From IMG/VR virus record IMGVR_UViG_3300042889_001274, positions 1-27,657 of that record: a stretch of DNA of 27,657 nucleotides. One strand, 5' to 3'. This stretch comes from a virus. The notes beneath the pieces are model-generated. The model was not told where the DNA came from, did not search any database, and saw nothing but the letters and a program-made list of their open reading frames with translations. The position numbers and the translations under genes are program-made. Below, piece by piece: positions 2,419 through 26,162 of this stretch. Positions within the stretch are counted from its first letter, which is position 1. Each line of letters begins with the position of its first letter.

Positions 2419-2432
2419 GCTTACACGTTAGC
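2419..2432. promoter_or_regulatory. Palindromic operator-like site, 11/12 match
   Basis: GCTTAC-AC-GTTAGC matches the family consensus GCTTAC-NN-GTAAGC at 11 of 12 positions. It lies in the short gap between the chaperone stop (2407) and the next start (2463), within the late operon. A two-base centre is too tight for a good RNA hairpin loop, so a DNA site for a dimeric protein is more likely. The binder is unknown. Confidence 0.55.
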
Positions 2433-2462
2433 GCATAATTCAGACTTTGACAAGGACTTTTG

Positions 2463-2678
2463 ATGACGCCTGCAGAACGCTTTTTGGCTGAGGGGGCAGA
2501 ACCCTTTGGCAACCGGCTGCTGTACCGCCGCCAGGATGTTGGGGTGTTCAATGCCGGGCAGCTGCTGCTGACGCCGCTGGGGCTGGCTGAGCTGGCGCGG
2601 TTGGAAGCCATCACCGATGTGGAAGTGAAGCCGGTAAAACCCCGACGGGTGCGCGACGCTGACGTCGCTGCCGAGTAA
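2463..2678 (+). CDS. Small conserved-looking phage protein, unknown function
   Basis: This 71-aa protein begins MTPAERFLAEGAEPFGNRLL. I chose the ATG at 2463, which has AAGGA six bases upstream; a TTG one codon earlier is possible. It is short, without membrane segments, with a Leu-rich centre (GQLLLTPLGLAELARLEA) and a basic end (KPVKPRRVRDADV). It lies between the fibre genes and the internal virion protein genes in the same direction, so it is probably a minor virion or assembly protein. I do not recognise a family. Confidence 0.7.
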   Translation: MTPAERFLAEGAEPFGNRLLYRRQDVGVFNAGQLLLTPLGLAELARLEAITDVEVKPVKPRRVRDADVAAE

Positions 2679-2718
2679 TTTGAAACTGCAAGCCCAGCGC
2701 TGGGCATAGGAGCACCCC

Positions 2719-3972: not shown

Positions 3973-3982
3973 GGAGCTAATC

Positions 3983-5692: not shown

Positions 5693-5701
5693 GGATTACT
5701 T

Positions 5702-8700
5702 ATGGTTTGGCGCCCAATTGGAAAAATGCAGTCCGCTGCCGACTACGACACGTCGGGGCAGTGGTCTAACCGCATCGGAGCCTCTGTCGACAACTACCAG
5801 GCCAATCTGTACGGCTTGGCTGAGGCCATGGGCAGCGACTGGGCGGGCGAGCAGCGCCGCAAGAACGAGCAGGAGGCTGCCTACCAGCGCGAAGTGGCGC
5901 GTCGGCAGGGTGCAATCTCCTCCTACAAAGATGTTGGCGGTGTGGGTGACGCGCTGAACTACGTCGGCGGTCTGGCGGTGGACTCTGCGCCGTATCTGGC
6001 TGAGAGTGTTCTGGGTGGCGGCCTGGGTAGTCTGGCCGCGCGGGGCCTGGGGCTGGCCGGTAAAGCGGCGATCAACACGGCACGTACTGCCGGGGGCGTG
6101 GCAGCGTCTTACCCGTCCGCCGTGGGCGACATCTTGAGCAACCAGCGCGAGCAGGCGGGCGAGACGAACCTGGGCGCAGCCGGGCTGCTGGGCGTACCTT
6201 ACGCCGCGCTGAATGCTTTTGGCATTGAGGGGGCTTTGGCGCGCCGGCAGGGTCTGCGCAGTGCCGGGCGGTATCTGGACGAGCTGGGTGGCGTGACGGG
6301 TGGGTTGGCAAGGACGGGTGTGACTGGCTTGCGTACCGGCCTAGTCGAGGGCGCAGCAGAAACCGGGCAGGAGTTTGTCAACCAGGCTGGACGCAACGCG
6401 GTGGACCCGCGCGCGGGCTACTTTGGCGACGAGGCGGTGGATCGGTACAAAGAGTCGTTCGTCGGCGGTGCCGCCCTGGGCGGAGTGTTTGGCGGGGGTG
6501 CCGGTGGCTGGCGGCGCAGTGAGAACTACAAGGCGCCGGGGCAGGAGCAGGCACCGCCTGCGGGGGAGCAGCAGCAAGACCTGTTACGTCCTGCGTTCGA
6601 CTTGGACGGCGGTACTGGCGCGCCGGTGCCGCAGGGTGCTGCAGCCGAGCGGCCCGAGGTGGTCTGGACTCAGGTAACCGGCTCTGACGGTAAGCCGGTG
6701 ATGGTGCCGTCGTACCCCGCTGGCTACCAGGCCAGTCGCAGTGAGGATGGCCAACGCAGCTTAATGTCTGATGTGTACGAAACGGTGAACGGGGTGCCGA
6801 CCCAGCTGACCAATGATGAGCTGATGGGCAACCAGCTACCGTTCAACCAGGGTTCTTTTTGGCTGGAGCCCGGTACCAGCCAGGGCCTGGCGCGACCTAA
6901 TTACGGCAATTTGCTGGAGCCTACCGGACTGGTGCCGGCCATGGATGACCAGCAGGCCTCGACCGGACGCGATCTGCCTGAGTTGAGCACCACGATGGAC
7001 CCGCTGCAGCCGCGCATTGATGCCAATCTTGGGCTTGACCGCACCCCCTACGCGGGTAAGGGCTACGCCGCGCAGTTCGAGGCAGCAGCCTCAGAGCCGA
7101 CCCAGCAGCGGGTGGCCGATGCCGCAGGCGGGCAAGTGGAAGTTGCCGATACCGCATTGGAGGAAGTGCAGCGCCAGGCCGGAATTCTGGCCCAGGAGCA
7201 GAAGCAACAAAAGGATCGGGCTGAGCTGGTGGCAAAAACCAACGCTGAGAGGGACCGCTTGAAGGCGGTCGATACCAGCATGGCGGAATTTGGATTGAAG
7301 GGCACAAAATATCGTGAGCTGTTTGACCAACTGGAGCAGTTGTTCACGAGCAAAGCAATCACCAAGGAGCAGTTCCAAGAGCAGGTCAATGCGCTGCAAT
7401 TGAGAGCGTTGGGCAAAGTCAGCAAGTGGCTGGCCACCAACGGCACCCCAGTACCAGGCACCCCAACCACAGCAACCACCACCCCAGGAGCCCCGAATGC
7501 AAAAACCCCTCAAGCCCAGCAAACAGCGACGGCGGGATCAGCGGCCACCACCGCAGCGGTAACCAATGGGACAACTGCTGCACCTGGAGCCGGACCTGCA
7601 GTACGCAGTGGAGCAGGGAGCCCTGTCGCTGGCGCAAGCGTGGTGCCTGCAGGACGAGATACTGCTGTCGGAGACGGGAGTGCTGCTGCTGCCCCAGGAG
7701 TGGGAGCCCCTGCTGCTGCGCCTGCAGCTGCTGCAAACGGAGCTGCCGCCGGGGGTACGGCGGTCGTAACCCAGAAAAGCCGCGTCGTCGCTCCTGGCTT
7801 GATGAGCCGGGTGGCGCCACAAAAGCCCGATCCTGTGGCCCCGCCTGCAACTGCACCGGCGACGCAGACAACTGCACCGGCCGTGGCCGCAAAGGTTGGC
7901 GGAATGGCAGTGCAGGTCGACCCACAAACAGGGGCCCCGAGGGTCGCCTATTCCAAAAACGGCGAAGGCACGATATTCAAGCTGACGGCGGAGATGACGG
8001 CGGGACCGCGCGCGGTGGCCCAGTTGGAAAATGGCCGCTGGATGCTCAACCCGGAGGCCTCTGAGCGATCCGACGCAGCCCCAGTGGTGCTGGGCGCCAC
8101 GGAGGAGGAAGCCCTGCAGAACCTGCCGGCCGCAGTGACCGCCGCTGATGCGCAGGTGGCAGCTGCCATGGACGCAAAGAAAACCCAGACGGCTTCTGGC
8201 AAGCGGGCGGTTAAGTTTGAGGCAGTGAACGGCAAGGCTGTTGACAATGCTGGCCGAGTCGACCCCGTAAAGCTGGATCAGGCGGCTGCACACAATTTGC
8301 CTATCCTGCGCGCAGTGCGCCTGAGCCTGGGCATTGACGATGAAGGCAACCGGATACCGCCGCTGGCCGATGGTGCTGCGGCCTCGATGGCGGGGATTGG
8401 TGAGAACTCGCAGTCAGCGGTGAGTAACGCGCGCAGTGCGCTGTTTGGGAAAAACCATTCGGCAGCGACCAAAACTTTCAGGGCAGGGGACCAGCAGGGC
8501 TCCAAGTTCCCCGGCGCAGTTCCTGGCACACCACTTGACAGCAATGAGACTGCCTTGTCTGATGAGGTGGCGCCAACTACCTTGGACGAGCAGCTGGACA
8601 CCCCGGCTGAGGACACCACTGATGCCGGGTACCAGCGAGGTTTTTCTGACGTTGGCCTGACCGACGAACAGGGCGACCGGGCTGCGGATAGTGGCACTGA

Positions 8701-11700
8701 CAAAGATGAATGGTCGGAAGGCACGCAGATCGTGGAGACGGCCGGCGGCAGCGGCAGCGCGATCGAAACCACCAGGCCAACTCGAATCGACTCGTCCCCA
8801 TCGTTCAAAAAAGTAAAACTCTTGGGTGGAATTACCAAAGCGCCCACAGCGCTGGTACTGCTGGCCACACAGATGGCGCAGCGCCATGTCAACAGCCAGA
8901 CAGTGCAAACGACTGATACGCCCACGGTCAAGCAGAACGCCAAGGACAACGACCAGTTGTTTGAGCTGCTGACGAAGGAGACTGCGAAGCGCGAGGCGGA
9001 TAACCCCCAGGCTTACCGAGCTGCAAAGAAAGTGTTTCAGCTGGCGTTGGCCAAGCTCGGCAAGCCGGAGACGAACGAATCCACTGAGACTGAAGGCCAA
9101 ACCACGCAGGATGAAGCGCTGGACGAGGACGTGTCAGACGAGGTGCTGGACGCCGTAAGCGCCGAGCCAGGGACCCAGCTCCAAACCAGGCCCAAGCGGG
9201 GGAAAAAGGCCGCCCAGATCACCGACGACTCCAACACCATCGACGGCACTGACCTGGTGCGCGAGGTGCCCGATGTACCCACTGAAACCAAGCAGGTGCT
9301 GCGGCTCGGCTTGGATGGCGCGACTCCCGCGCAGCTGGATGCCCTGGCGAAACACTACGGCACATCGCGCGGCTCGCGTGAGTTCTGGGCCAAACTGAAC
9401 GAGGACGTCAGCAGCTTCATTACCCAGGGCGCAGAGGCCGTGGCTACGGCCATTCGGGCCATCATCAAGAAGGTGTCGGAGGGAGTGTTGGCCATGGCGG
9501 TGGTGTTCAACCCCAGCGGCTTTGACACGAATGTTGGGGCCGCCATGGCGGCAGCACCGCAGACGGTGACCATCACCAAAGAGGTGCAGTTCCGGCAGAA
9601 CCGGACGGCTGACACGGGCGGCCGGGTGCTGGCCCCCAACGTGCAGAAGGTGGTGGATTGGATCGCCTCACAGAACCGGGCCTCCGAGGTGTCGCTGGTG
9701 CTGGACCCGGCCAGTGGCAAGATGCTGGTGCTGAAGGGCGGCAAGATTGTGGCCGACGCGCCAGCGCTGTTTGGCGAGCTGGGGGTGCAGGTGGTCAATG
9801 GGGACTATGGTCGCAAGGCAACGCCGGCCGGCAAGTTTGCCCTCAAGCAGGTGAACGATAGCGAGTACGGCACAACGCTGGAGTTCCTTCGCCCTGGCGA
9901 TGGCAGCGGCTATTACGCGGTGCACCGGGTTTACCTTGGCGACCCGAAAGAACGGCGTGAGCAGCGGCTGGCCAGCCCGAGCGGCGCGGACAACAACATC
10001 AGCTTCGGCTGCGTCAACGTCAGCAATGATTTCTACGACAACACGCTGGCAAAGTTCGACTACTCTGGGTCGGCATATGCTTACATGTTACCAAGTGACG
10101 TGACGCAGCAGGATGCTGTGATCCCGACACCGGACAACACGCTGCGCCAGACCGTGACGCAGACAACGCAGCAAGGCTCGGCAACCACCCAGGCAACCCC
10201 GGCGCAGGGCGCTGCGGACCGGCGAGTGACAGGGACGACTCAGCAGCAGGGCAGTATTGAGAAGTCCACTGCCGCCAAATTGCCAGCCAAAGGCACGGCC
10301 CACACCGCCAAGTCTTTGAATCGGGCACTGACCCAGTTCATGCGGGTGCGGGCTTTGGGCCGGCGCGTGGTGGTGGTGGGAACGGCTGCAGAACTGCAAA
10401 GCAAAATGACACCGGCGGACCACGCCGCCTTTGTGGCTGCCGAGTTGACTGGCGCCAGGGCAGTGGCTTTTGCCAAGGATGGCCGGGCTTACTTCATTGC
10501 CGACCGGATGACGATCGGTAAGGAGCGCGGCATTTTCCTGCATGAAGTCGGCTCGCACCTGGGGCTGCAGAAGATTCTGACGCCGACCGAGTTCGCCAAA
10601 CTACACACCCAAATTGTGAGCTGGGCACTCAAAAACGACAAGTCCCCCGAAGCTCGGTATGCCAAGCAGGCGATTGCTCGCGCGGACGCCGCTCAGACTG
10701 AAGCCGGCCAGCTGGAAACCGAGCAAGTTGCCTACTTCATTGAGGAGGCAGTGAACGATGGCTTTGACCCGTCGATGTCCCAGATAAAGAAAGGGCCTGT
10801 CGAGCTGTTCATGGCGCTGGTGATGCGGGCCTTCAAGAAAGCGCTGGATGCCCTGGACTTCAACACCAGCAAGCTGACGGCGCTGGATGTGGTGGACCTG
10901 GCCTATGGTGCGGCCGGCATGGTAGCCCGTGCGGATCAGGGGCCGGTGATGAAATCCCTGATGCAGTTCTCCAAGGCAGCAGCAGCAGCCGCCCCCAACC
11001 AGTCCACCATCCCACCGCAGCTGCGCAGCACAACCACCAAGATCGCCCAGGTGATCAAGGATGCCTTGTCGGGGGTGGCCAACAAGGTGGTGTTTACGCA
11101 GGACTTGCTGGAGCGGGCGCAGCGGCTTGGGTTGACCTCTGCCAAGACGTTTGGCGAGCTGTACCGGAAACGGGCCACGATGCTCAACGGCCTGAACAAC
11201 CGGGTCAATGATGTGGCGCTGCTGTACGGGCAGGTGCCTGAGCGCGAGCGGGGGACGGGTGCTGGCAGTGTCAACGCACTGCTCAAAGAAAGCACGATGG
11301 ATGAGAAGTGGGCGTTTGCGCCGAGCTGGATGCCCAAGGCGCCGGTGGACGCTGCGCTGGCCAAGCGGTTTACTGCCATGTCGCCCGAGGGACAGGCGTT
11401 TGTGACGGCGGTGCTGGAGCACGGCCACAAGACCCTGAAGGACAAGCAGCGGATTGTGCTGGGCGCCACCAGCAGCGAGTACGACGCCCTGATCGCCAAC
11501 GCCCGCCAGCGCGGCGACACGGACGAGGTGAGCAAGCTCGAAGCTGACAAGGCCAAGCTGGTGGCCAAGTTTGAGGGCCTGTTCAAGACCAGTGGGCTGA
11601 ACCCTTACGCGCCGATCAAACGCTTTGGGGATCATGTGGTGCTGGCCGAGTCCAAGCAGCTCAAGGCCGCGCGCGCCGCTGGCGACGACAAGCTGGTGAC

Positions 11701-13764: not shown

Positions 13765-13778
13765 GCTTACCTGTAAGT
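13765..13778. promoter_or_regulatory. Palindromic operator-like site, 11/12 match
   Basis: GCTTAC-CT-GTAAGT matches GCTTAC-NN-GTAAGC at 11 of 12 positions. It begins nine bases after the giant gene's stop and precedes the late terminator. It is also framed by a six-base inverted repeat (AACTGC at 13761-13766 and GCAGTT at 13786-13791). Its place at an operon end, away from any start codon, would suit a site that blocks elongation rather than initiation. Confidence 0.55.
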
Positions 13779-13816: not shown

Positions 13817-14986
13817 TTATAGCTCGCGGATTGAGCCCCCCTCTGTTGCGGGGGCTCTTTTTTCTGTGCTGACCAGTTGCAGCAGGTGGCGCTCCCAGGC
13901 GCGCCAAGCAGCGCGCTTCTCAACCACGTACTCGCCCCGGTCGTAGATCGCCAGCACACCCCCGAGCTTGTGGTTCAGACACTTCTCGCCGATGTGCGGC
14001 ATGACGCCGAGGTCGCTCATGTGGGTCCGCATGGTGCGGCGCAAATCGTGCGGGGTGAAGGGTACTGCGAACTTCATGTAGCGGGTGGCGTGAGACAGCG
14101 CCTGGCCCGCCATGGGCACACCGTCAACCACAAAGGGTTCGCTACCGAATTCCTTGAGCAGCAACTTGCACAAGCGGCGCGCTACTGGTCCCAATTGAAC
14201 TTGCATGTCAACGGTGGTTTTTGTGATCTGCTTGGGGATGCGCCAGACGCCGCCCTTGAAGTGCGCCCGAGTGAAGGACCGGATTTCGCCAGAACGCTGG
14301 CCGGTCAGCAGCGCCAGCCCCAGCGCCAGCCGGGTACGCAGATCGAAGGCAGTTTCCTTCTGCCGCGCCGCCGACCAGTTGTGGCGCAGCACCCCCAGCA
14401 ACTCCAGCAGTTCTTCATCGCTCAGTACCCGGTCCTTGCTGATCTCCCGGCCGCCAGCCACGGTTTGGTTCAGCAGCTGCGCCGGTGAGCCCTCCAGCCA
14501 GCCGCGGGTCACGGCGTAATTGAACAGCAGCTTGATGTCGGTGAGCAGCCGATTGGCCTGCACCGGTGCGGTGGTGGCGACTTTGCTCAGGCAGTTGGCC
14601 AGCTCGGCGCGAGTGATTTGCGCCAGCAGCCGGGTGCCGTATTTGGGGGTGAAGTGCAGCTCCATGCGGTCACGCACCTGCTTGGGGCTTTTGTACTTTT
14701 TCTCGATCGCTCGGACAATCCACTCGTCATAGGCGGTCTGAACTGTGACTTTATCGCCGGACAATTTGCCGGCCATGACGAGCACTTTTTTCCGGGCATC
14801 GGCCAGTCCAAGCTCTGGGTAGGTGCCCAAACTGACCCAGCGCGAGCTGCCCGAACTTTGGTCGCGGTAGACAAACACTTTGCTGCCGTTCCTGTAGACT
14901 CGCAGGTAGAGCTTGCGGCCGTCGCTGTGGAACACGTCCTTGTCTTCGGCCTTCAAGGTTTTGATTTTTAGATCAGTGAGTGGCAT
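13817..14986 (-). CDS. int: Tyrosine recombinase / integrase (P4-type, DUF4102 N-terminus)
   Basis: This 389-aa protein catalyses site-specific recombination between attP and the host tRNA gene. The N-terminal ~85 residues (LKIKTLKAEDKDVFHSDGRK, LYLRVYRNGSK, LGTYPELGLADARKK) match the DUF4102 arm-binding domain of P4-type integrases. The catalytic set is complete: Arg231 in LLTGQRSGEIR, His313 and Arg316 in HDLRRT, His339 in CLNHKLGG and Tyr349 as nucleophile (AIYDRGEY). It is transcribed leftward and converges on the late operon, sharing its last ~30 bases with the late terminator. The start has only a weak GAGGGT ten bases upstream. A TAGAAT box about 62 bases upstream may be its -10 element. 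The attP lies directly upstream of the gene, as is usual for tRNA-targeting integrases. Confidence 0.95.
   Translation of the reverse strand: MPLTDLKIKTLKAEDKDVFHSDGRKLYLRVYRNGSKVFVYRDQSSGSSRWVSLGTYPELGLADARKKVLVMAGKLSGDKVTVQTAYDEWIVRAIEKKYKSPKQVRDRMELHFTPKYGTRLLAQITRAELANCLSKVATTAPVQANRLLTDIKLLFNYAVTRGWLEGSPAQLLNQTVAGGREISKDRVLSDEELLELLGVLRHNWSAARQKETAFDLRTRLALGLALLTGQRSGEIRSFTRAHFKGGVWRIPKQITKTTVDMQVQLGPVARRLCKLLLKEFGSEPFVVDGVPMAGQALSHATRYMKFAVPFTPHDLRRTMRTHMSDLGVMPHIGEKCLNHKLGGVLAIYDRGEYVVEKRAAWRAWERHLLQLVSTEKRAPATEGGSIREL
13833..13863 (+). terminator. Rho-independent terminator of the late operon
   Basis: GAGCCCCC (13833-13840) pairs perfectly with GGGGGCTC (13850-13857) across a nine-base loop and is followed by six T (13858-13863). 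It faces the rightward virion genes. It lies inside the 3' coding end of the leftward integrase; read leftward, the stem is not followed by a T run, so it should act on the late transcript only. Confidence 0.9.
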
Positions 14987-15185: not shown

Positions 15186-18100
15186 TCAAGGACTTACAGC
15201 GGTTTCGGTAGGTGCAGCAGGGTCCACAGTGACTGCTACCGTGACTTCTTGAGTGACTGCAGCTAAGTCAGTGACTTCCACTGGCGGCAGCTGCACCACG
15301 TTGCTCAAGCCAGCGCTCTCGTCGCTGGCGCTGAAGTTGACAACCTTCTCGTAATCAAATTCATAGCACTGCGCTTGCGGACGTGTCACCGAGGTGCCAC
15401 TGCCAATATTGATCAAAATCGGGGTGACTTTCTGCCCAGGCACCACGTTAGCCAGGTAGCCCCGCTGCAGCATTTCTGCCAGCATGGTGCTGGGCATGAT
15501 GCGTTTGCCGGCTGCCCATTCCTTGAGCGCGTTGGATGTGACCACGAAGCGCTTGTCGTCGAGCGCCTTGCGCGCCACCGGGATCGCGTTGACTGACAGC
15601 GGCTCCAGCGGCAGCTCGACGTTCTTGGCGCGCCGGCCCGGGCCGAGCTTCATCTGGCGGGTGACGATGGTGCGGCCGTGCAGGCTGGCGACAAAGTCCG
15701 AGATCGTGCTTTCCCAATCCACCGCGCCAATGTTGTCGCGCAGTTTGAGCAGCTGCGCTTCGCCCCAGCGGACCATGGCCGGGATGTCCCAGTGGATATA
15801 GCCCTTGGCCTTGGCCAGGGTGCCCGCCACGCTGATGGTGACCAGCAGGTCCTTGTAGAAGCGAATGCTGCTGGTGTCCTCCGGGTCGATCATGTAGCTC
15901 TTGCGCTTCTTGCCCAGCTCCTCGGCGATGCGCAACCGGTTGTTGACCAGGAACTGAATCCACTCTCGCCCGACCTTGCCGTACTGCTGGGCCAGCAGAT
16001 CATCCTCCACGGTACTGCGGTGGATGTCGTGGAACAGGGTCCGCACGTTGTTGGGGAGCGTCATCTCAAAGCTGCGCAGCTGGGTGGCTTCCTGGGTTTT
16101 TGCGGAGCGCAGACCCTTGAGCACTTCATGCGCGCTCTCGTTGGCGGTGATCAGGCTGATCAGGTCCCAGCGGTAGGGGTTGGGAATCATCTTGCCGTTG
16201 GTGCCCATGCGGTCCTTGGCTTTGCCGTTGGCCTGCATGTAAAAAATGTCGCCAAACTTTGAGGCCTCGACGTCACTCATCTCATCCATCAAAAACGGCA
16301 GGTTGCGTAGGGACCCCATCTTGATCGACAGGGCGTTGATGGTGTCGCCCTGGCCGCCCTTGCCGCCCTGGGCGGTGAAGCGCAGCACCTGCGCCGGTGC
16401 GTACATCGACATGCCGGCCAGCGCCGTGGAGGTTTTGGCCGCGCCGGAGTCGCCCCAGATGACGATCGGGATGCCGTGCCATTCGCCGCCACCCGGCATG
16501 AGACGCACCAGCGGGGATGCAAACATGGAGGTGACGATGAACTGGTAGGCCTCGGCGTTGGGCCGGTTGTAAATCCGGTCGACCAGCGCCACCCATTGGG
16601 CGGTCGTGCCCTTGCTGGTGAAGTCGGCGCGCAGCGTGGCGTCCACGGTGTCCGCCAGCAGAATCTGCTGCGGGGGTTCTTTGGGCCGGAAAACGGTGTC
16701 GCCCAGCACAAACTCGCCGGTGAGTTCGCCGCGCTGGCTGTGGTTTTCACTGACCCAGCCCATGGTGGGGAACATGGCGGTCTCTTGCTGGTATTGGTAG
16801 AGGAGTGTTTGTTCGTACATCAGAATTTGTTGTGCCTTGGGCAGCGCGTATTTGCTTCCGTAAAAGTGCAGCTCTCGGGATGAGAACTCTTTGCGCAGCA
16901 GATCGGAAGTGGAGACTGCTGCGCTGTCCAGTAAAAATGTTTTGTAGGGTTTGCCGGGGTACTGTTCGTAGCCGATCACCAATTGCCAGACGTTGTCGAC
17001 GGTGCGGACCCGGTCCATGACTTGCCAGTAGCGGTCGCAAAAGGGCACATGCTTGTAGGTGCCGTCCTCCCGCTTCTCGCTCATGGTCATGGCGCCGTTG
17101 GAGTAGCCGGTGCGGGTGGCCCGGGCAGTTGCGTCCATGATCCACTGGGCCCCAAAGGTCCAAGCACCGGGCATGCTGGGGATTGACGGGCTCTGGGCGC
17201 CGGGCGCTGGCGCCGGCAACGCCGCAACGATGGGTTGGGCGGGTACGCCCAGCTGGATCGGGCTTTTGATCTTGCCGCTGTGGGGGCAGCTGGCGCAGGC
17301 GGTGCTGTGTTTGCCAAAATCGGCGCAGGTGGTCGGGCCCACTGCCCAAGCTGCAGTGACGGCCTGCCAATCAGATTTGTCGTGTGTGGCAGCACGATCG
17401 CGGGTCCATTGGGCGGCGACGGCGTCGCCGTCTTCGCAATGCTTAGCCACACCCATGGCGCGCCACCAGATTTCGTAGGGGACGTCGCCACCTTGGATGT
17501 CAACTTTGGCCAGGATCGGGCAGCTGCTGGAGACCAGCACGCCATCTGCCGGCGGGTAGGCCTTGTTACCAATCAAGTCGTTGGTCACGGGGGCGGCCAG
17601 CTTGGGCAGTTTGACGCCGACGATCAGGCCCTGTGCATCCGCGTAGGCTTTGAGCAGGCGCCACAGCGCGGCAGCCGGGCTGGCTTGGCCGAGCCGCTTG
17701 AGGGTGACGGCCTTGGCCGGGCTGCCCTTGTAGTTGTGGGTGCCGGGAATGCGCAGGATGCTGGCCTTGTCCTGGGTGCGGCTGGTGTCGTGCTTGACGC
17801 CAAAGTGGTCGAGGCAGGCGGCGTACATGGCGGCCAAGCGGTCCCACTGCTCGGCAACGATGGGTTTGGTCAGCGGCTGGTACAGGTGCACGCCACCACC
17901 GGAGCCGACGACGTGCGCCAGCGGCAGGCCTAGTGCCACCCGGAAGCGTTCGTAATGGGTGACGGCCTCTTTCTGGCTGGCGTAGGGTTTGGTTGGGCCG
18001 ACATCCAGATCGAGCCAGATGGCCTGGATCGCCAGCACGTTGTCGCCCTTGCGGTTGTCGCTGGTCTTGTAGACAGCGCAGCCGTGGTAGACGTTTTTGC

Positions 18101-18272
18101 CGAGGCCGTCGTAGGTGGCAGCGGCCACCATCAGGTCATCGTTGTTGTCGTAGAAACTGTGGGTGGGTGGGCTTTTCAAACCGTTCTTGAAAACGGCAAG
18201 CGCGCGCAGCCCGACAGTCGGGAAAATACTTGCGTAAAAATTGGTGTCCACTTGTCCCCCGACGTGGTGCAT
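15186..18272 (-). CDS. Bifunctional primase-helicase (AEP/PrimPol N-terminus, DUF927-like helicase C-terminus)
   Basis: This 1028-aa protein probably primes and unwinds phage DNA. The N-terminal domain has the archaeo-eukaryotic primase signatures: Asp88 and Asp90 in WLDLDVG (metal binding), His129 in GSGGGVHLY, and RIPGTHNYKG at 174-182. The C-terminal domain has Walker A GDSGAAKT (607-614) and Walker B with Asp663-Glu664 (LMDEMS), followed by an ITANES sensor-like strand. The region before Walker A (MGWVSENHSQRGELTGEFVLGD) resembles DUF927-type helicases. The Val-Thr-rich C-terminal tail carries att arm repeats. The ATG at 18272 lacks a visible Shine-Dalgarno; instead a CCTGCTTACACAT block ends 13 bases upstream, as in the preceding gene. 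It is the last gene of the leftward replication block. Confidence 0.9.
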   Translation of the reverse strand: MHHVGGQVDTNFYASIFPTVGLRALAVFKNGLKSPPTHSFYDNNDDLMVAAATYDGLGKNVYHGCAVYKTSDNRKGDNVLAIQAIWLDLDVGPTKPYASQKEAVTHYERFRVALGLPLAHVVGSGGGVHLYQPLTKPIVAEQWDRLAAMYAACLDHFGVKHDTSRTQDKASILRIPGTHNYKGSPAKAVTLKRLGQASPAAALWRLLKAYADAQGLIVGVKLPKLAAPVTNDLIGNKAYPPADGVLVSSSCPILAKVDIQGGDVPYEIWWRAMGVAKHCEDGDAVAAQWTRDRAATHDKSDWQAVTAAWAVGPTTCADFGKHSTACASCPHSGKIKSPIQLGVPAQPIVAALPAPAPGAQSPSIPSMPGAWTFGAQWIMDATARATRTGYSNGAMTMSEKREDGTYKHVPFCDRYWQVMDRVRTVDNVWQLVIGYEQYPGKPYKTFLLDSAAVSTSDLLRKEFSSRELHFYGSKYALPKAQQILMYEQTLLYQYQQETAMFPTMGWVSENHSQRGELTGEFVLGDTVFRPKEPPQQILLADTVDATLRADFTSKGTTAQWVALVDRIYNRPNAEAYQFIVTSMFASPLVRLMPGGGEWHGIPIVIWGDSGAAKTSTALAGMSMYAPAQVLRFTAQGGKGGQGDTINALSIKMGSLRNLPFLMDEMSDVEASKFGDIFYMQANGKAKDRMGTNGKMIPNPYRWDLISLITANESAHEVLKGLRSAKTQEATQLRSFEMTLPNNVRTLFHDIHRSTVEDDLLAQQYGKVGREWIQFLVNNRLRIAEELGKKRKSYMIDPEDTSSIRFYKDLLVTISVAGTLAKAKGYIHWDIPAMVRWGEAQLLKLRDNIGAVDWESTISDFVASLHGRTIVTRQMKLGPGRRAKNVELPLEPLSVNAIPVARKALDDKRFVVTSNALKEWAAGKRIMPSTMLAEMLQRGYLANVVPGQKVTPILINIGSGTSVTRPQAQCYEFDYEKVVNFSASDESAGLSNVVQLPPVEVTDLAAVTQEVTVAVTVDPAAPTETAVSP
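15225..15280 (+). repeat. Right-arm direct repeats of attP inside the primase 3' end
   Basis: GTGACT recurs at 15229, 15241, 15253 and 15271 (spacings 12, 12 and 18). The second copy lies in TACCGTGACTTCT, identical to the left arm repeat over 12-13 bases. These lie within the last codons of the primase gene and correspond to its repetitive Val-Thr tail (EVTDLAAVTQEVTVAVTV). I infer arm-type integrase or accessory-factor sites that also serve as coding sequence. Confidence 0.55.
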
Positions 18273-18281: not shown

Positions 18282-18295
18282 GCTTATGTGTAAGC
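18282..18295. promoter_or_regulatory. Palindromic operator-like site before primase, 11/12 match
   Basis: On the plus strand GCTTAT-GT-GTAAGC matches GCTTAC-NN-GTAAGC at 11 of 12 positions. It lies in the 79-base gap upstream of the primase, nine bases before its ATG. Read in the direction of the gene it is part of CCTGCTTACACAT, which recurs with identical spacing before the 19350 gene. The gap also holds two small GC hairpins (18301-18318 and 18320-18334) without T runs. Confidence 0.6.
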
Positions 18296-19359: not shown

Positions 19360-19373
19360 GTTGATGTGTAAGC
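19360..19373 (-). promoter_or_regulatory. Half-conserved site before the SSB candidate
   Basis: In gene orientation the block CCTGCTTACACAT (complement of 19364-19376) ends 13 bases before the ATG at 19350. One palindrome half (GCTTAC) is intact and the other is degenerate (ATCAAC). The same 13 bases at the same distance precede the primase. No Shine-Dalgarno is visible between the block and the ATG. Confidence 0.45.
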
Positions 19374-19772: not shown

Positions 19773-19989
19773 TTGTAAGTACCTCATTGTTGTCGTTGGC
19801 TGTGGTGTGCTTACTTTGCACCCACTCGTGAATGGCACCATCTACCCAGCGGGTGCCTCGCGCTCGCTCCTCCCCCCCGCCGATGCTGATCGGCTTGGGA
19901 AAGGCGGGGTCTCGTTTGAGCAGCAACCAGATATAGCTGGTTGAGCAGCTCAGTTTTTCGGATACTTGTTTAACTGTAAGCAGGTTCAT
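19711..19989 (-). CDS. AlpA/excisionase-like helix-turn-helix protein
   Basis: This 92-aa protein starts MNLLTVKQVSEKLSCSTSYIW. The N-terminal ~60 residues fit a MerR/AlpA/Xis-type winged helix: a 'VKQVSEKLSCSTSYIWLLL' helix-turn-helix, then FPKPISIGGG and RWVDGAIHEWVQ, the usual end of AlpA-like domains. Such proteins activate or repress phage genes or direct excision. I chose the ATG at 19989 because a strong promoter lies directly upstream with a predicted transcript start at about 19990, giving a leaderless message; an in-frame ATG at 20052 would lie upstream of that promoter. The C-terminal ~30 residues are low-complexity and overlap the next gene by 62 bases. Its second to sixth codons contain AACCTGCTTACA, also found before the primase. 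Confidence 0.7.
   Translation of the reverse strand: MNLLTVKQVSEKLSCSTSYIWLLLKRDPAFPKPISIGGGEERARGTRWVDGAIHEWVQSKHTTANDNNEVLTNENGRPGAEVHSDPREEVAA
19968..19981 (-). promoter_or_regulatory. Half-site at the start of the HTH gene
   Basis: In gene orientation the HTH gene begins ATG-AACCTGCTTACA; the GCTTAC half is intact and the second half (GTTAAA-like) is degenerate. The same AACCTGCTTACA 12-mer occurs before the primase. The site lies immediately downstream of the promoter at 19997-20024, where a bound protein would block initiation or early elongation. Confidence 0.4.
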
Positions 19990-19996
19990 ATGGGTA

Positions 19997-20024
19997 ATGA
20001 TAAGGGTGGTTTTGAAATTGTCAA
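19997..20024 (-). promoter_or_regulatory. Sigma70-type promoter for the HTH-SSB-primase operon
   Basis: Reading leftward: TTGACA (complement of 20019-20024), a 16-base spacer, then TATCAT (complement of 19997-20002). The -35 is a perfect consensus and the -10 matches five of six. The -35 overlaps the stop codon of the helicase gene. Initiation about seven bases after the -10 would place the transcript start next to the ATG at 19989. Confidence 0.7.
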
Positions 20025-21598
20025 GTGCTTGTAGATACTCTGTTGTCTTCAACCATGGTTAACAGGATGCCCTGCATCTTCTGCTTGTTCTTCAAGCGGT
20101 CGTAGGTTTTCTGCTCGATCGGGCTCCCTTCGATGTTGACGATGAGCTGTCCGCGCTTCTGCCCAGGCCGGGTGATCCGGGCACAGGCTTGGTCGTAGAT
20201 GTCGTTACTGAAGATCGGGGCGTACCAGATGATGGTATCGGCTGCGGTCAGGGTCAGGCCGTGGCTCATGGCAGCGGGTTGTGCCACCAGCACACGTGGA
20301 TCGTCTGTGTTCTGGAAGGCGCCAAAGATGCGGTCGCGCTCGTTCTTGCTGACCTCGCCGTAAATACACTCGACGGTGACGCCATGGGTCTCAAGGTAGC
20401 GGGCCACGTGGGACACAGCCGATATGAATGGGACGAACACAATGACTTTGCCGGCCGCCTCCTCGATGATCTCGCGCACCACCTTGAGCCGGGGTTCGGA
20501 GTCCAGCGCCACCTCCTGGCCGTTGACATCGTATGCAACTCCACACGCTATCTGCACTAATTTACTGGCCTTGACCGCCTCGTTGACCGCCAGCACCTGG
20601 CCGGCAGCAGCCTCGAAACTGAGCTTGGTCAGCATGTCTTTGTAGGCGCTGGTCTGCTCGGCGGTCAGGGCGACGTGCCGGGTTTGGAACACACAGGGCG
20701 GCAGGTCAACGCACTCGGCCCGGCTGAACCGGATGGCTGGCTGCATGGCCGCATGCACCGTTTCCATGGCGCCGGGCCGGGCGACCCACAGGAAGTTGTT
20801 GACCTGCTTCATGACCAGGTCTTTGAAGCGGTTGAAGTAGGTCGGCACGCTGCCCGGGGTGACCAGCCGGCATTGGGCCCAGGCGTCTGTGGGGGCGTTC
20901 GGCGTAGGCGTGCCGGTCATGCCCCAGCACCAGCGGGTGCCGTTTTGCTGCTTGTTGATGAGCTGGTTGAGCGCCTTCCAGCGGTCGGTTGAGGCGTTGC
21001 GGGCGGCCTGGGCGATCTCGTCACTGATGATCAGGTCGATGTCGGGCCGGTCTTTGAGGTCGTCGAGGATGATCTGCAGGCCGTCGTGGTTGACGATGTA
21101 GACGTCGGATGACTGCTGCAGCAGCTTGAGCCGGCGCTTGCGGTCGCCATACAGCACGCAGTAGTCCAGATGCGGGAAGTGGCGGAACACCTCGTCGGCC
21201 CAGGTGCGCTCCATGGTGGAGAGCGGGCAGACCACCAGCATCCGGTTAACGACGCCGAGCTTTTTCAGGTAATCAAAGGCCCACAGCGCAGCCAGGGTCT
21301 TGCCGGTGCCCATCTCATTGAGCACGTAAGCGCGCCGGTTGAGAGTCAGGAACTCCGAGGTGTCCATCTGCGCCTTGAACGGCGTGTAGCTGCCGGACCA
21401 CTTGTAGAAGTAGCGAATGGGGGAGGGCGGGCTCATGCCCAGGTTCTGCAGCACCCGCATCTCGTCGAGCTTATGGGGCACAGCCACGAACTGCTTGCCG
21501 CCAACGGTCAGGGGCCTTGCAGTGGGGATCAGCGCCAGCAGCTGTTCAGGGTTGCGGGGGCGCAGCACCAGCGCCTTTTTGTGGGGGTAGACCAGCAT
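20021..21598 (-). CDS. SNF2-family (superfamily 2) DNA helicase
   Basis: This 525-aa protein has the ordered SF2 motifs: Walker A GTGKT (97-101, NEMGTGKTLAAL), motif Ia region VVCPLSTMERTW (122-133), Walker B-type DEIA (193-196), motif III WGMTGTPTPN (225-234), a C-terminal SHGLTLTAADTIIWYAP region (motif V) and ARITRPGQKRG (motif VI). The RITRPGQ form is typical of SNF2-like phage helicases. It is about the usual length for a minimal two-RecA-domain enzyme. It probably remodels or unwinds DNA during replication or recombination. It starts three bases after the stop of the HNH-like gene; its end overlaps the -35 of the next promoter. Confidence 0.93.
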   Translation of the reverse strand: MLVYPHKKALVLRPRNPEQLLALIPTARPLTVGGKQFVAVPHKLDEMRVLQNLGMSPPSPIRYFYKWSGSYTPFKAQMDTSEFLTLNRRAYVLNEMGTGKTLAALWAFDYLKKLGVVNRMLVVCPLSTMERTWADEVFRHFPHLDYCVLYGDRKRRLKLLQQSSDVYIVNHDGLQIILDDLKDRPDIDLIISDEIAQAARNASTDRWKALNQLINKQQNGTRWCWGMTGTPTPNAPTDAWAQCRLVTPGSVPTYFNRFKDLVMKQVNNFLWVARPGAMETVHAAMQPAIRFSRAECVDLPPCVFQTRHVALTAEQTSAYKDMLTKLSFEAAAGQVLAVNEAVKASKLVQIACGVAYDVNGQEVALDSEPRLKVVREIIEEAAGKVIVFVPFISAVSHVARYLETHGVTVECIYGEVSKNERDRIFGAFQNTDDPRVLVAQPAAMSHGLTLTAADTIIWYAPIFSNDIYDQACARITRPGQKRGQLIVNIEGSPIEQKTYDRLKNKQKMQGILLTMVEDNRVSTST

Positions 21599-21601
21599 GG
21601 T

Positions 21602-22163: not shown

Positions 22164-22169
22164 GATCGC

Positions 22170-22421
22170 TCAGCACTTCCACGCCTTGAGCGACTTGTTG
22201 ATGCGGCTGTTGGGGTCCTTGGCTGTCTTCTCGGACGTCAGCTTTTCCTTCATGCCGGTCATCCGGGCACAGAATGAGTCGCGCCGCGCGCCGCCCTCGG
22301 GCTGCGGTGCTTTGAGCCCCGGCTTGCCTGGGTTGGCCTTGTTGTAGGCCGCGCGCCCTTTGGCGTTCAGGCCGCCGTCCGGGTCTTTGCCTTCTTTACG
22401 CGTCCATGCGGGTGTCTTCAT
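22170..22421 (-). CDS. Small phage protein of DUF6321 type
   Basis: This 83-aa basic protein begins MKTPAWTRKEGKDPDGGLNA and continues KGRAAYNKANPGKPGLKAPQ. The middle contains RRDSFCARMTGMK and the end is LKAWKC. The pattern 'W.RKEGK.P.GGLNAKGR' with a later 'R..SF.ARM.GM' is one I associate with DUF6321, a family of small phage proteins with no known function. Its ATG overlaps the previous stop as ATGA. Its basic, low-complexity nature suggests nucleic-acid contact, but nothing firmer can be said. Confidence 0.8.
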   Translation of the reverse strand: MKTPAWTRKEGKDPDGGLNAKGRAAYNKANPGKPGLKAPQPEGGARRDSFCARMTGMKEKLTSEKTAKDPNSRINKSLKAWKC

Positions 22422-22606
22422 GTTGGTCGTTGCTCGGCTTGCGCCAGAACATCCTCCAGGTTGGGCGCAGGCAGCGCCAGTTGGTCCAGTGCATGGACGA
22501 GTCGGGTGGCCAGCTCAAGCTCTAAGGCATTGCGTAACTCGACGGTTTGGTAGACCACTTGCAGCAATTCCTCGTCGCTGTAGTGGCCGTATGGGGTGAG
22601 TGACAT
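22418..22606 (-). CDS. Small acidic-helical protein, unknown function
   Basis: This 62-aa protein reads MSLTPYGHYSDEELLQVVYQ, then TVELRNALELELATRLVHAL and an acidic end. It starts at 22606, where its ATG overlaps the nuclease stop (TGATG). It is almost entirely helical, like many short phage accessory proteins with 'YSDEELL' starts. I do not recognise a function. It is coupled on both sides, so it belongs to the same leftward operon. Confidence 0.7.
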   Translation of the reverse strand: MSLTPYGHYSDEELLQVVYQTVELRNALELELATRLVHALDQLALPAPNLEDVLAQAEQRPT

Positions 22607-23277
22607 CACGTTTTCCCTGAAAAAGAACATTGACTGCGGCCGACAGGACAGTAACGAGCGCACAGTCCTGACGGTTTGGGTGGGAAACTTGCTGTCGTGT
22701 AAGCACGAACAAGTCGCTGCGTACGAGGAAGGAAGCTCTGCCAAATGCTCGGCAAATCCGACCGCGTGAAACTTTGCTTGTCTATCTTCTTATCCTTGAG
22801 CCAGATGAAGCCTGTTTGCACCTGCTCCAACTGAGGATAGTGAGAAAACGCCAGACCGGCAAACAGCATGAGCTGATCGGAGTCGGGTTTTCGCTTACCT
22901 GTTTTCCAGTCTAACAGTAAGGCCTGCTGTCCGCTACTACTGACTAACCCTATGTCAACAATGCCACGGCACCAGGCCTCGGGGGCGGTCCACTCAACGG
23001 GTTGGAAGGCCGCGTCGATCGCCAGCTGCTCCTCGATCAGCAGGGTGCCGGTGGTGCCCAGGAGTGGGGCGACCAGGCTCTCATAGCCCGCGATGCTGCT
23101 GGGCAGCGGGGTGCCGTCGCGGACGCGGTCTTCCAAATGTTTGTGCACGATGCTGCCCCACAGGGCGGCCTCGCCCGGCGCGTCTTGCACGTCTTTGGCG
23201 ACCTTGATGTGGTAGTAGCGTTTGGCACAGGTCTCGAAGGACGTCAGGCCTGAGTAGGACCAGGGGGGTGTTGTCAT
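22606..23277 (-). CDS. Cas4/RecB-like PD-(D/E)XK nuclease with probable Fe-S cysteines
   Basis: This 223-aa protein is of the Cas4/AddB-like exonuclease type. Core residues: WGSIVHKHLE (His45), GIVDIG (Asp108), and LLLDWKTGKRK with Asp123 and Lys125, followed by QLMLFAGLAF (motif QxxxY-like). One Cys near the N-terminus (Cys17 in ETCAKRYY) and three at the C-terminus (Cys206, Cys210, Cys217 in GLCARYCPVGRSQC) match the four-Cys iron-sulphur arrangement of Cas4 and AddB. No cas1/cas2 or CRISPR array is present, so it is a phage recombination/replication nuclease. It starts with a TAATG overlap and ends with a TGATG overlap. Confidence 0.9.
   Translation of the reverse strand: MTTPPWSYSGLTSFETCAKRYYHIKVAKDVQDAPGEAALWGSIVHKHLEDRVRDGTPLPSSIAGYESLVAPLLGTTGTLLIEEQLAIDAAFQPVEWTAPEAWCRGIVDIGLVSSSGQQALLLDWKTGKRKPDSDQLMLFAGLAFSHYPQLEQVQTGFIWLKDKKIDKQSFTRSDLPSIWQSFLPRTQRLVRAYTTASFPPKPSGLCARYCPVGRSQCSFSGKT
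22691..22704 (-). promoter_or_regulatory. Weak half-site inside nuclease gene
   Basis: In gene orientation GTGCTTACACGAC retains one intact half (GCTTAC) of the dispersed palindrome; the other half is degenerate (GACAGC). It lies in coding sequence about 85 bases before the next start. It may be chance; it is listed because TGCTTACAC recurs at three better sites. Confidence 0.2.
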
Positions 23278-23873: not shown

Positions 23874-23905
23874 GCTCCGGTTGTAGTTTGCGAGTAGATT
23901 CTAGT

Positions 23906-23919
23906 GTCTACCTGTTAGC
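23906..23919. promoter_or_regulatory. Degenerate palindrome in the gap after polA, 9/12 match
   Basis: GTCTAC-CT-GTTAGC matches GCTTAC-NN-GTAAGC at nine of 12. It lies 33 bases before the start at 23873 in the only sizeable gap (23874-24003) of the upstream half of this block. Next to it, GATTCTAGT (23897-23905) gives TAGAAT in gene orientation, a possible -10. A related GATTCTAGT plus GTAGAC block lies upstream of the integrase. Confidence 0.35.
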
Positions 23920-24003
23920 ACATGCGTCCTATACCTTGCTGCAGATCAGGAGCGCGCGAAGATTAGCACACATCAGTAAAAATAATCATTGCGGTGTCTT
24001 TTT

Positions 24004-25947
24004 TTACTTGGCCGCGCCGTAGCTCTCGGCAATGTCCCCCTCGCTCCACAGCACAATCCCCGGTAACCAGCTGGGCGGACTGCGCATGATGCGGTTCACC
24101 TGCTGCAGGTGGGCTGTGGCTTTGGCTTCTGGCACCACGTACACCAGCTCATCGTGCACGGTCAGCGCTGGGCTGTAGCCGGTGGCTTGTCGAATCGACA
24201 GGGCCTGCTCAGCGATGACGTCGCGGGCGATGGCTTGCACCACGTTCTCATCCATGAGACCTGAGTACACCTTGGACTCTGTGCGGCCACTGCCATAGCG
24301 GTACTGCTGTTTGCCGCGATCGTCGATGGTGCTGCGCAGCTCCGGGTAGTAGAGGAAGCGGCCCGACGGTAGCCGGACTTTGTCCGGCCCAGCGTGTAGC
24401 AGCGCGCGTTTGTCGGGGCTGAACGCCACGCCCTGGTGCATAGACTTGATCATCTGTTGGCAGCTGCGCCAGCCGTCGACGATCTCGTGGTACTTGACGC
24501 GCCAGGTGGTGGTGACGCGCATGGCCTCGTTGCTGTCGAGGTCGATGCCGCCCATGAGCTTGGCGACTTTCTGGAACGTGGTGGCCCCGGCCCCGAAGCC
24601 CAGGCCCAACTGCGCGACTTTGGCCAACTGGCGCTGGTCCTTGCTGACCTGGTCCCGTGTGATACCAAACAGATCGGCTGCGAATTCTTTGTACAGGTCG
24701 GCCTCGGGGTCCGCCGCGTACAGCTGCCGGGTGCTGGGCACGTCCCACAGGTAGTGGTTTACCCGTAGTTCGATGCCGGACAAGTCAGAGACCACGATCA
24801 GGTGCCCCGGTGGGGCGACCAGCGACTGGCGCAGGGCATTGCTGAGCTTGGGGATGATGCTGCCGTCTTTGTTGCGCGGGATGCGCGGCAGGTTCTGCGG
24901 GTTCCAAATCCGTCCACTCCAGCGCCCGGTTGTGGCCCCGTGGTAGGCGAGGGGTACGGGCATGCGCCCGCCCATCATCTTGGCGCAAACACTCATCCGG
25001 TGCAGTCGTGTTTCCAATAACGTGGACTTCACACCCAGCCTAGTGGAGGTGATGAGTTGCACGCGCTCGTCTTCATGCTCAAGCAGCGCAGTAAATTCCT
25101 CGTCAGTCTTGGCCAGGGCCAGGGCTTCTTTGCCGGTGGTCTTGCTGATCTTGGTCGGAGGCTCAACCCCAAAGCTGCGTAGGGCTTGGGCGAATGCGTT
25201 GGCGCTGGCCAGGGTGGCACGGACTTCCTCGGCGTCCAGCACACCCAGCACGTCAGTCAACGCCTCCAGCTGCTGCTGCTTGGTCGCCTCGACTTGCACC
25301 AGGGTGTCGTCCAGCAGGTCGGTGTCGCAGTGCAGCTGGGGGTAGCAGATCATCCGGGCGGTCATGTCACTGAGCAGCAGCTCCCGCTTCATGGCTTGGC
25401 TGCTGTCCACGATCTGGCGCAGGTCCTCCAAGTCCGCAACATCCGGGGCGCGCAGCAGCTTAAACAGCTCGCTGGTGTTGTCGGTGTCGGTCTTGTTGTA
25501 GGTGTGCATCTGGTCAACCTCATCGGCGCTGAACTCGCTGAGGCGCCGGCCCTTGGTGTTGAGCAGCACGGTGTTGTCTTTGACGGGCAGGTTGTAGTGC
25601 GAGGACAACTTCTTCAGGCTGCCGCCCACCTGTGACTGGTGCCGCGCTTTGGACAGGGCCAGGGTGTCAACGAACAGGGCCGGGTGGACGTCGTAGGTCC
25701 AGACCAGCAGCGGGAAGTCGAACTCGTTGCCGTTGTGGGCGACGCAGGCCTTGTCGCTCCAGTCGATGCTGCGCAGGTAGGGGGCGACGTCCTCGCCGAA
25801 GTACACCTCGGTGGCAGCGCTGCCGATCTTGGCCGCCACGCTGATGACCTCGAACTCGGGCGACTGGATGTACTCGATGAAACTGATCTTGCTCAAGCTG
25901 AACTCAGTCGTCCAGAATGTTTCAAAGTCGATGGTGATGGGGGTCAT
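24004..25947 (-). CDS. polA: Family A DNA polymerase with 3'-5' exonuclease domain
   Basis: This 647-aa replicative polymerase has exonuclease motifs Asp7/Glu9 (IDFETFW), Asp77 (AHNGNEFDF) and Tyr150..Asp154 (YNKTDTD). Polymerase motif A is VVSDLSGIELRV with Asp388; motif B is RQLAKVAQLGLGFGAG; motif C is TVHDELVY with His598, Asp599 and Glu600. The length fits phage PolA enzymes lacking the 5'-nuclease domain. Motif A has Leu-Ser-Gly where bacterial Pol I has Tyr-Ser-Gln, and motif B has Phe where Pol I has Tyr; both suggest a distinct phage subfamily. Its ATG overlaps the upstream stop as ATGA, and a perfect operator-like palindrome lies 37 bases upstream. Confidence 0.96.
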   Translation of the reverse strand: MTPITIDFETFWTTEFSLSKISFIEYIQSPEFEVISVAAKIGSAATEVYFGEDVAPYLRSIDWSDKACVAHNGNEFDFPLLVWTYDVHPALFVDTLALSKARHQSQVGGSLKKLSSHYNLPVKDNTVLLNTKGRRLSEFSADEVDQMHTYNKTDTDNTSELFKLLRAPDVADLEDLRQIVDSSQAMKRELLLSDMTARMICYPQLHCDTDLLDDTLVQVEATKQQQLEALTDVLGVLDAEEVRATLASANAFAQALRSFGVEPPTKISKTTGKEALALAKTDEEFTALLEHEDERVQLITSTRLGVKSTLLETRLHRMSVCAKMMGGRMPVPLAYHGATTGRWSGRIWNPQNLPRIPRNKDGSIIPKLSNALRQSLVAPPGHLIVVSDLSGIELRVNHYLWDVPSTRQLYAADPEADLYKEFAADLFGITRDQVSKDQRQLAKVAQLGLGFGAGATTFQKVAKLMGGIDLDSNEAMRVTTTWRVKYHEIVDGWRSCQQMIKSMHQGVAFSPDKRALLHAGPDKVRLPSGRFLYYPELRSTIDDRGKQQYRYGSGRTESKVYSGLMDENVVQAIARDVIAEQALSIRQATGYSPALTVHDELVYVVPEAKATAHLQQVNRIMRSPPSWLPGIVLWSEGDIAESYGAAK

Positions 25948-26162
25948 TTCCAGTCGTCCGTGTTTGTTGTGTTGGTTGTGTACTGCTTACGAGTAAGCGC
26001 CATGGCATCGCGCAAATCTTTGCGGTATTGGTCCAGCGCCTGCTCTTGCAGCAGCAGCCGGGTGTTGGCCTCCAGGGCGAACTTGGCAAGGGTATCAAGG
26101 GCCCAGCTTGCGAATGGGTTGTGTGCCGGGTTGTTGGGCGGGGTCGGGGGTAGCGAGTCCAT
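25944..26162 (-). CDS. Small helical protein upstream of polA, unknown function
   Basis: This 72-aa protein begins MDSLPPTPPNNPAHNPFASW; the ATG at 26162 has AAGGA five bases upstream. After a Pro/Asn-rich start it forms one amphipathic helix (ALDTLAKFALEANTRLLLQEQALDQYRKDLRDAM). It ends in an ATGA overlap with polA, so its translation is coupled to the polymerase. Codons near its end contain the perfect palindrome at 25985-25998. I recognise no family; a helical adaptor or regulator is possible. Confidence 0.65.
   Translation of the reverse strand: MDSLPPTPPNNPAHNPFASWALDTLAKFALEANTRLLLQEQALDQYRKDLRDAMALTRKQYTTNTTNTDDWK
25985..25998. promoter_or_regulatory. Perfect palindromic operator-like site upstream of polA, 12/12
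   Basis: GCTTAC-GA-GTAAGC is the only perfect copy of the dispersed palindrome in the window. It lies within the last codons of the small gene preceding polA, 37 bases before the polA start. Being inside coding sequence, it argues for selection on the DNA site as well as on the protein. Confidence 0.6.

What the first reader, a model, noticed from the sequence alone, without database searches (positions are those of the whole stretch)
2419..25998. Dispersed palindrome GCTTAC-NN-GTAAGC: candidate regulator binding sites across the phage genome
Seen: 25985-25998 matches 12/12; 2419-2432, 13765-13778 and 18282-18295 match 11/12. With equal base frequencies, windows of this length should contain about 0.06 matches at 11 or better. 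Three of the four strong copies fall in the few short intergenic gaps, and the fourth is 37 bases before polA. Weaker copies lie at 19360, 19968 and 23906. The two-base centre makes an RNA hairpin unlikely, so a dimeric DNA-binding protein is implied. Sites in both the late and early operons, including one after the last late gene, recall the 'stoperators' of mycobacteriophage L5 (established example of scattered repressor sites). No repressor gene is in the window.
Basis: partly seen in the sequence, partly recalled or inferred. Interest (0 to 1): 0.75.

Follow-up and report, generated by a model that had tools for sequence, protein, structure and literature searches.

The report
Dispersed phage operators in gene gaps
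This phage and its relatives carry dozens of copies of one short DNA palindrome, mostly in the gaps between genes, and related phage lineages carry different palindromes in the same kinds of place, which points to a viral control protein that switches the whole genome on or off.

Summary
GCTTAC-NN-GTAAGC is the core of a 22-bp palindrome (ACTTGCTTAC-NN-GTAAGCAAGT). A weight matrix trained only on relatives finds 11 sites of at least 12 bits in the window, against 0.2 in shuffles. The 55-63 kb relatives carry about 25 sites each; 1.45 Mb of other phage loci hold 2.

Sites concentrate at gene boundaries (22 of 31 against 4.1 expected). Cores are conserved at matching gaps where the flanks have diverged to chance. 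Other lineages of the family (including Rhizobium phage RHph_TM3_14A) carry their own dispersed boundary palindromes, 16-36 per genome.

The two halves vary independently, so the sites look like DNA sites for a dimeric protein, not RNA hairpins. Best explanation: operators of a phage-encoded dimeric regulator, probably a repressor that silences the genome piecemeal, as mycobacteriophage stoperators do. In this clade about 30% of gap sites precede a -10-like box, so many are probably promoter operators. They are not L5-type stoperators: the sites are symmetric, and no CI-type repressor was found.

The regulator is unidentified. The 19711-19989 HTH (Phage_AlpA) carries a site at its own 5' end but is absent from the other lineages.

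The parts
2419..2432 (.). palindromic site (core), 11/12, 22.8 bits; in the gap before the small gene 2463-2678; followed by CATAAT one base later
   Evidence: orthologous sites in G001 (3729) and G005 (30206) with a -10-like box at the same spacing
13765..13778 (.). palindromic site in the convergent gap, 8 nt after the stop of the last late gene
   Evidence: core 14/14 identical to G004 20818 at the same position, flanks 25% identical
18282..18295 (.). palindromic site 9 nt upstream of the primase-like (DUF927) gene; followed by TATTAT
   Evidence: sites in the same gap in G001, G002, G004 and, weaker, G005
19360..19373 (.). weaker palindromic site 9 nt upstream of gene 18352-19350
   Evidence: 14.1 bits; G005 has a 10.9-bit site in the same gap, other relatives none
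19968..19981 (.). palindromic site covering codons 3-7 of the AlpA-like gene, just downstream of its promoter
   Evidence: 22.1 bits; site at the 5' end of this gene in G001, G005, G002 and G004
22691..22704 (.). palindromic site inside the exonuclease gene (coding constraint may contribute)
   Evidence: 20.9 bits; same position in G002 and G004
22893..22906 (.). weaker palindromic site inside the exonuclease gene
   Evidence: 14.2 bits
23906..23919 (.). weaker palindromic site in the gap between polA and the 195-198 aa gene
   Evidence: 13.6 bits; sites in the same gap in G001, G002 and G004
25985..25998 (.). palindromic site, perfect core, 37 nt upstream of polA
   Evidence: a weaker site in the same gap in G004 only
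26451..26464 (.). palindromic site followed directly by TAGAAT on the - strand
   Evidence: 16.8 bits
19711..19989 (-). AlpA-like HTH gene (92 aa), candidate but unproven regulator
   Evidence: Pfam Phage_AlpA E 5e-6, above cut-off; orthologues in the clade; absent from lineages with other palindromes
19997..20024 (-). sigma-70-type promoter (TTGACA-16-TATCAT) of the AlpA-like gene, ending 16 bases from the 19968-19981 site
13817..14986 (-). tyrosine integrase (Arm-DNA-bind_3 + Phage_integrase): temperate phage or descendant of one
15186..18272 (-). primase/DUF927 protein
20021..21598 (-). SNF2-type helicase, family marker used to fetch relatives
24004..25947 (-). DNA polymerase, family marker used to fetch relatives
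5702..13756 (+). giant 2684-aa late (virion) protein

Best explanation
The palindromes are operators read by a phage-encoded dimeric DNA-binding regulator. Most likely it is a lysogeny-type repressor that silences the genome piece by piece: at promoter sites it blocks initiation, and at sites in gaps without a promoter it blocks or pauses elongation, as stoperators do. In this clade many sites lie immediately upstream of a -10-like box, in the place of the -35/-10 spacer, so they are probably promoter operators. Related lineages carry different palindromes, as expected if the regulator and its sites diverge together as immunity systems do. Shown: the sites, their number, symmetry, gap placement, conservation, the -10 association and lineage specificity. 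Inferred: a protein ligand, repression rather than activation, the elongation block and the immunity role. The regulator gene is unidentified and may lie outside this 27.7-kb fragment.
For: A matrix from three relatives finds 11 window sites of 12 bits or more, against 0.23 in shuffles. Relatives reach 3-9 sites per 10 kb, against 2 in 1.45 Mb of other loci. 22 of 31 strong sites lie at gene boundaries, against 4.1 expected, P 3e-13. At orthologous gaps the cores are 79-100% identical while the flanks are 23-46%. The halves deviate independently: 307 one-sided changes, and 38 double changes against 37 expected. A -10-like box lies 1-5 nt downstream in the transcription direction in 11 of 39 co-directional gap sites, against 1 of 39 on the antisense flank; its spacing is conserved at the 2419-type gap in three phages. 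Other lineages have their own dispersed boundary palindromes. The phage has an integrase.
Against: No repressor was found. HTH_3 is below cut-off or absent in all ten records searched, and a candidate with three operators upstream (G013 53960-54700) matches nothing in Pfam or PHROGs. Several family members with many sites lack a Pfam integrase match (G011, G013, RHph_TM3_14A), so lysogeny is not assured for all. The -35 regions next to the -10-like boxes look poor to the eye, which would also suit an activator. The extra -10 boxes are not seen in the other lineages. Gene boundaries come from my own simple gene caller.
Confidence: 0.5

Rival explanations
1. The palindrome is the site of a lytic-cycle activator or switch protein that turns on many dispersed promoters, rather than a lysogeny repressor.
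For: In this clade 11 of 39 co-directional gap sites have a -10-like box at +1 to +5, with conserved spacing at orthologous gaps; -35 elements look weak by eye; some family members lack a Pfam integrase match.
Against: A dimer centred near -20 overlaps the polymerase footprint, which is typical of repressors. Most sites lack a -10-like box, and the convergent-gap site at 13765, conserved in three phages, has no gene to activate. RHph_TM3_14A, G011 and G013 show no -10 association.
Confidence: 0.25
2. The AlpA-like HTH protein encoded at 19711-19989 is the protein that binds the sites in this clade.
For: It is the only DNA-binding protein I found shared by the clade. Its own 5' end carries a site in W, G001, G005 and G002 (inside codons 3-7) and in G004 (36 nt upstream). 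In marine relatives L118-L124 and L143, related palindromes lie 37-60 nt upstream of it, in L119-L121 around a -35/-10 pair.
Against: Phages with other dispersed palindromes lack it (G011, G012, G013, RHph_TM3_14A). Its predicted recognition helix varies widely while the operator stays constant. Nearly every gap has a site, so one at this gene is weak evidence. In four phages the site is inside coding sequence and could follow from the peptide L-T-x-K-Q.
Confidence: 0.2
3. The sites act in RNA as short hairpins that control translation or processing near start codons.
For: In RHph_TM3_14A and some G011 sites the right half carries the Shine-Dalgarno sequence 2-6 nt before the start codon; in G013 the SD follows the palindrome directly.
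Against: Halves vary independently, complementary double changes are not enriched, and G.U-compatible changes are 34 of 307 in this clade. Here the sites are typically 30-40 nt from the start codon, some in convergent gaps or inside genes. The core allows only a 5-bp stem.
Confidence: 0.06
4. Dispersed partition, packaging or chromosome-organising sites (ParB/KorB-like or nucleoid-type) rather than transcription operators.
For: Many symmetric sites through the whole genome. A related plasmid record, pSTEC648_2, encodes a ParB-family protein.
Against: That ParB has no detectable homologue in the phages with the palindromes. Spacing is not more regular than random, and placement follows gene boundaries.
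Confidence: 0.08

Closest known systems
Stoperators of cluster A mycobacteriophages (L5, TipsytheTRex)
   Same: More than 20 copies of a short site through the genome, in promoters and in short intergenic gaps; variation between related phages.
   Different: L5 sites are asymmetric 13-mers oriented with transcription and bound by a monomeric two-domain repressor (PMC9283540). Here the site is a symmetric 22-bp palindrome, in podovirus-like phages related to phages of Proteobacteria, with no repressor identified.
SPBRE elements of Bacillus phage SPbeta, bound by MrpR
   Same: A repeated ~15-bp element at various intergenic regions, first found in silico and later shown to be the master repressor's site (PMC10516654).
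   Different: MrpR has a tyrosine-recombinase fold. Several phages here with many palindromes have no Pfam integrase match.
phiC31 conserved inverted repeats and P1 c1 operators (recalled, not checked)
   Same: Repressor sites dispersed over a temperate phage genome; the phiC31 sites are inverted repeats.
   Different: Different phages and site sequences; no homologous repressor tested here.
AlpA of Pseudomonas aeruginosa and its binding element
   Same: Binding element between the -35 and -10 boxes.
   Different: That element is asymmetric (GGGACGN5GGTA; PMC7969949). The window's protein matches the CP4-57 AlpA Pfam family; I believe the two share only the name (their homology was not tested).

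Membership tests
L5-type stoperator system | many short sites dispersed over early and late regions | tested here: met
   11 sites in 27.7 kb; 25-26 sites of >=12 bits in the 55-63 kb relatives
L5-type stoperator system | sites in short intergenic gaps near start and stop codons | tested here: met
   22 of 31 against 4.1 expected
L5-type stoperator system | asymmetric site, oriented with transcription | tested here: not met
   symmetric 22-bp palindrome; definition
L5-type stoperator system | cognate repressor gene with HTH and stoperator domain | not tested
   no search with an L5-type repressor was made; HTH_3 gives no match over cut-off
L5-type stoperator system | bound repressor stops elongation | not testable with these tools
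   needs reporter assays
SPBRE/MrpR-type system | repressor with an inactive tyrosine-recombinase fold | tested here: inconclusive
   PF00589 found in the window and four relatives, weakly in G005, absent in G011, G013 and RHph_TM3_14A; a divergent MrpR-like fold could be missed
lambda CI/Xre-type immunity | HTH_3 repressor encoded by the phage | tested here: inconclusive
   no match over cut-off in ten records, but the window record and several relatives are incomplete
Phage_AlpA (PF05930) | match above the curated cut-off | tested here: met
   26.6 bits against 21; concerns the gene 19711-19989, not the palindrome
RNA hairpin regulon | pairing kept by compensatory changes | tested here: not met
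   13 complementary and 25 non-complementary double changes, 307 one-sided; doubles at the level of independence

The most novel reading that the evidence does not exclude
A whole family of podovirus-like phages of Proteobacteria (hosts of most members unknown) regulates nearly every transcription block through its own fast-diverging palindromic operator, read by a regulator of a type not yet known (neither CI/Xre nor MrpR nor L5-type), so that each lineage has its own genome-wide code of 16-36 sites.
Probability: 0.2. Interest if true: 0.8.

Novelty: new variant of a known kind. Interest (0 to 1): 0.62.

Why it matters
Genome-wide silencing by dispersed operators is well worked out in only a few phages, mostly of Gram-positive hosts. 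A family with symmetric, lineage-specific sites and no recognisable repressor offers many natural pairs of regulator and site, so the evolution of immunity specificity can be studied by comparison. RHph_TM3_14A, with 36 sites and a culturable Rhizobium host, makes it testable. The palindromes can also type uncultured phages and help find the missing regulator.

Tried and rejected
(1) P. aeruginosa AlpA antitermination: looked attractive because the sites sit next to -10 boxes, but its element is asymmetric and the window's protein belongs to the CP4-57 AlpA Pfam family. (2) AlpA-like protein as the family-wide regulator: absent from lineages with other palindromes. (3) Integrase arm sites: several phages with many palindromes have no Pfam integrase match. 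(4) RNA hairpins: no compensatory signal. (5) ParB/KorB sites: ParB of pSTEC648_2 has no homologue in the others; its TGCGCANTGCGCA repeats are not at gene boundaries (4 of 18, P 0.34), whereas CATAATATTATG is (7 of 9). (6) Even spacing: not different from random. (8) G002 seemed to have another palindrome (AAGTTGN5CAACTT), but its copies lie mostly inside genes. (9) Distant phages Rollin, Parlo, Xp15, Effie and a Bradyrhizobium plasmid show no comparable palindrome (best -log10 P 5.7-8.4). (10) Literature searches for dispersed palindromes in such phages and for RHph_TM3_14A found nothing.

Full report
WHAT IS THERE. The pattern search confirms the four strong copies (25985 at 12/12; 2419, 13765 and 18282 at 11/12) and counts 20 matches at up to three mismatches, against 8.9 +- 3.2 in shuffles, none of which reached 20. 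At two mismatches the window holds 10, and the backwards-read control none. Among 179 other palindromes of the same composition the mean is 0.02 at one mismatch, against 4 observed. The window is a complete virus record of 27,657 bases, but a fragment of a larger genome: a late operon on the + strand up to the 2684-aa gene, then an integrase and the replication genes on the - strand.

RELATIVES. Polymerase, primase, helicase and terminase searches gave relatives. The exact pattern with up to two mismatches occurs 23 times in G001 (55 kb, 3 perfect), 19 in G005 (63 kb, 2 perfect) and 14 in G004 (34 kb, 1 perfect); the control gives 0-2. A blind scan of all 6-base half-sites with spacers 0-8 puts GCTTAC-N2 first in G001 and G004. 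In the window itself and in G005 that scan is topped by codon-periodic motifs, so there the evidence rests on the controls above.

THE FULL SITE. Aligning gap sites extends the palindrome to ACTTGCTTAC-NN-GTAAGCAAGT. A matrix from G001, G005 and G004 only, applied to the window, finds 11 sites at or above 12 bits, against 0.23 in shuffles; G002 gives 9 against 0.4, G006 only 1. Over all fetched loci the matrix finds 3-9 sites per 10 kb in many relatives, with GC from 0.46 to 0.63, and 2 sites in the remaining 1.45 Mb. The spread of base composition suggests several hosts, which favours a phage-encoded reader; this is inference.

PLACEMENT AND CONSERVATION. Of 31 strong sites in the clade, 22 are at gene boundaries or gaps against 4.1 expected (P 3e-13). 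At orthologous gaps the cores are 79-100% identical and the 40-base flanks 23-46%. Examples: the site after the giant virion gene in W, G004 and G005; before the primase in W, G001, G002 and G004; at the 5' end of the AlpA-like gene in W, G001, G002, G004 and G005; before the 75-aa gene in W, G001 and G005. Some gaps are not shared: before polA, only G004 has a second, weaker site. Gene boundaries come from my own codon-usage caller.

PROMOTERS. In co-directional gaps, 11 of 39 sites have a strong -10-like hexamer starting 1-5 bases downstream in the direction of transcription, against 1 of 39 on the other flank. At the gap of site 2419 the boxes CATAAT, CATAAT and TATCAT stand at the same spacing in three phages. 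So a good part of the sites are probably promoter operators in the spacer; the rest, such as the convergent-gap site 13765, are not at an obvious promoter.

OTHER LINEAGES. More distant family members have their own dispersed palindromes: TTACCTN4AGGTAA in Rhizobium phage RHph_TM3_14A (36 sites, 0.08 expected), TTGACAN3TGTCAA in G013 (30, 0.05), TTGTTCN4GAACAA in G011 and G012 (20 and 16), and fewer GTTAACN2GTTAAC in G014 and GTATCCNGGATAC in G016. For the first three sets, boundary placement has P between 1e-10 and 1e-16. Five more distant genomes show nothing comparable. In these lineages the sites lie 6-17 bases before start codons and show no -10 association.

DNA OR RNA. If pairing in RNA were the function, changes would be compensated. 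In the GCTTAC clade 307 pair positions deviate on one side and 38 on both, with 37 expected from independence; 13 of the 38 are complementary, and only 34 of the 307 could form G.U. This suits a dimeric protein reading two half-sites in DNA.

WHO BINDS. Not settled. The 92-aa protein at 19711-19989 matches Phage_AlpA, has a promoter TTGACA-16-TATCAT and a site in its first codons. But phages with other palindromes lack the gene, and its recognition helix varies among phages with the same operator. HTH_3 repressors were not found over cut-off. In G013 three operators stand directly before a 246-aa gene (53960-54700), and in RHph_TM3_14A sites flank a 242-aa gene; neither matches a known family.

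MECHANISM AND KNOWN SYSTEMS. The best account is a phage-encoded dimeric repressor that occupies promoter operators and gap sites and silences the genome in blocks. It works like the stoperators of L5 and the SPBRE/MrpR system, but is a member of neither on the features tested. Activation in the lytic cycle is the main rival. My literature searches found no description of this system, but the library lacks most subscription journals.

Noticed in passing
L228 (RHph_TM3_14A) e.g. 8333, 21631, 57369: The right half of the TTACCTN4AGGTAA palindrome doubles as the Shine-Dalgarno sequence 2-6 nt before start codons.
   Followed up: partly
L223 (G013 53960-54700): A 246-aa gene of no known family has three perfect or near-perfect operators directly upstream, divergent from the next gene: a candidate regulator or main early gene.
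   Followed up: partly
L232/L233 (pSTEC648_2, CP061838.1): This E. coli 'plasmid' looks like a phage-plasmid of the same family (terminase 30%, helicase 32%, DUF927 protein) with its own boundary palindrome CATAATATTATG and a ParB-family gene.
   Followed up: partly
L228 42239-45322: Annotated as putative integrase in RHph_TM3_14A, but homologous to the DUF927 primase-like protein of this window (25%) and G011 (39%).
   Followed up: no
G005:C1:19996-20208: Only a short integrase fragment (92-aa open frame) in G005, which still carries about 26 sites.
   Followed up: no
window 22170-22421: A DUF6321 protein 85% identical to one at a different place in G001 (25612-25866), next to the terminase and portal genes.
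   Followed up: no
L144, L152, L155, L162 upstream of the AlpA-like gene: Marine relatives without GCTTAC sites have TTGACA with different imperfect palindromes (such as ACCCTAAA..TTTAGGGT) in the spacer before a -10-like box.
   Followed up: no
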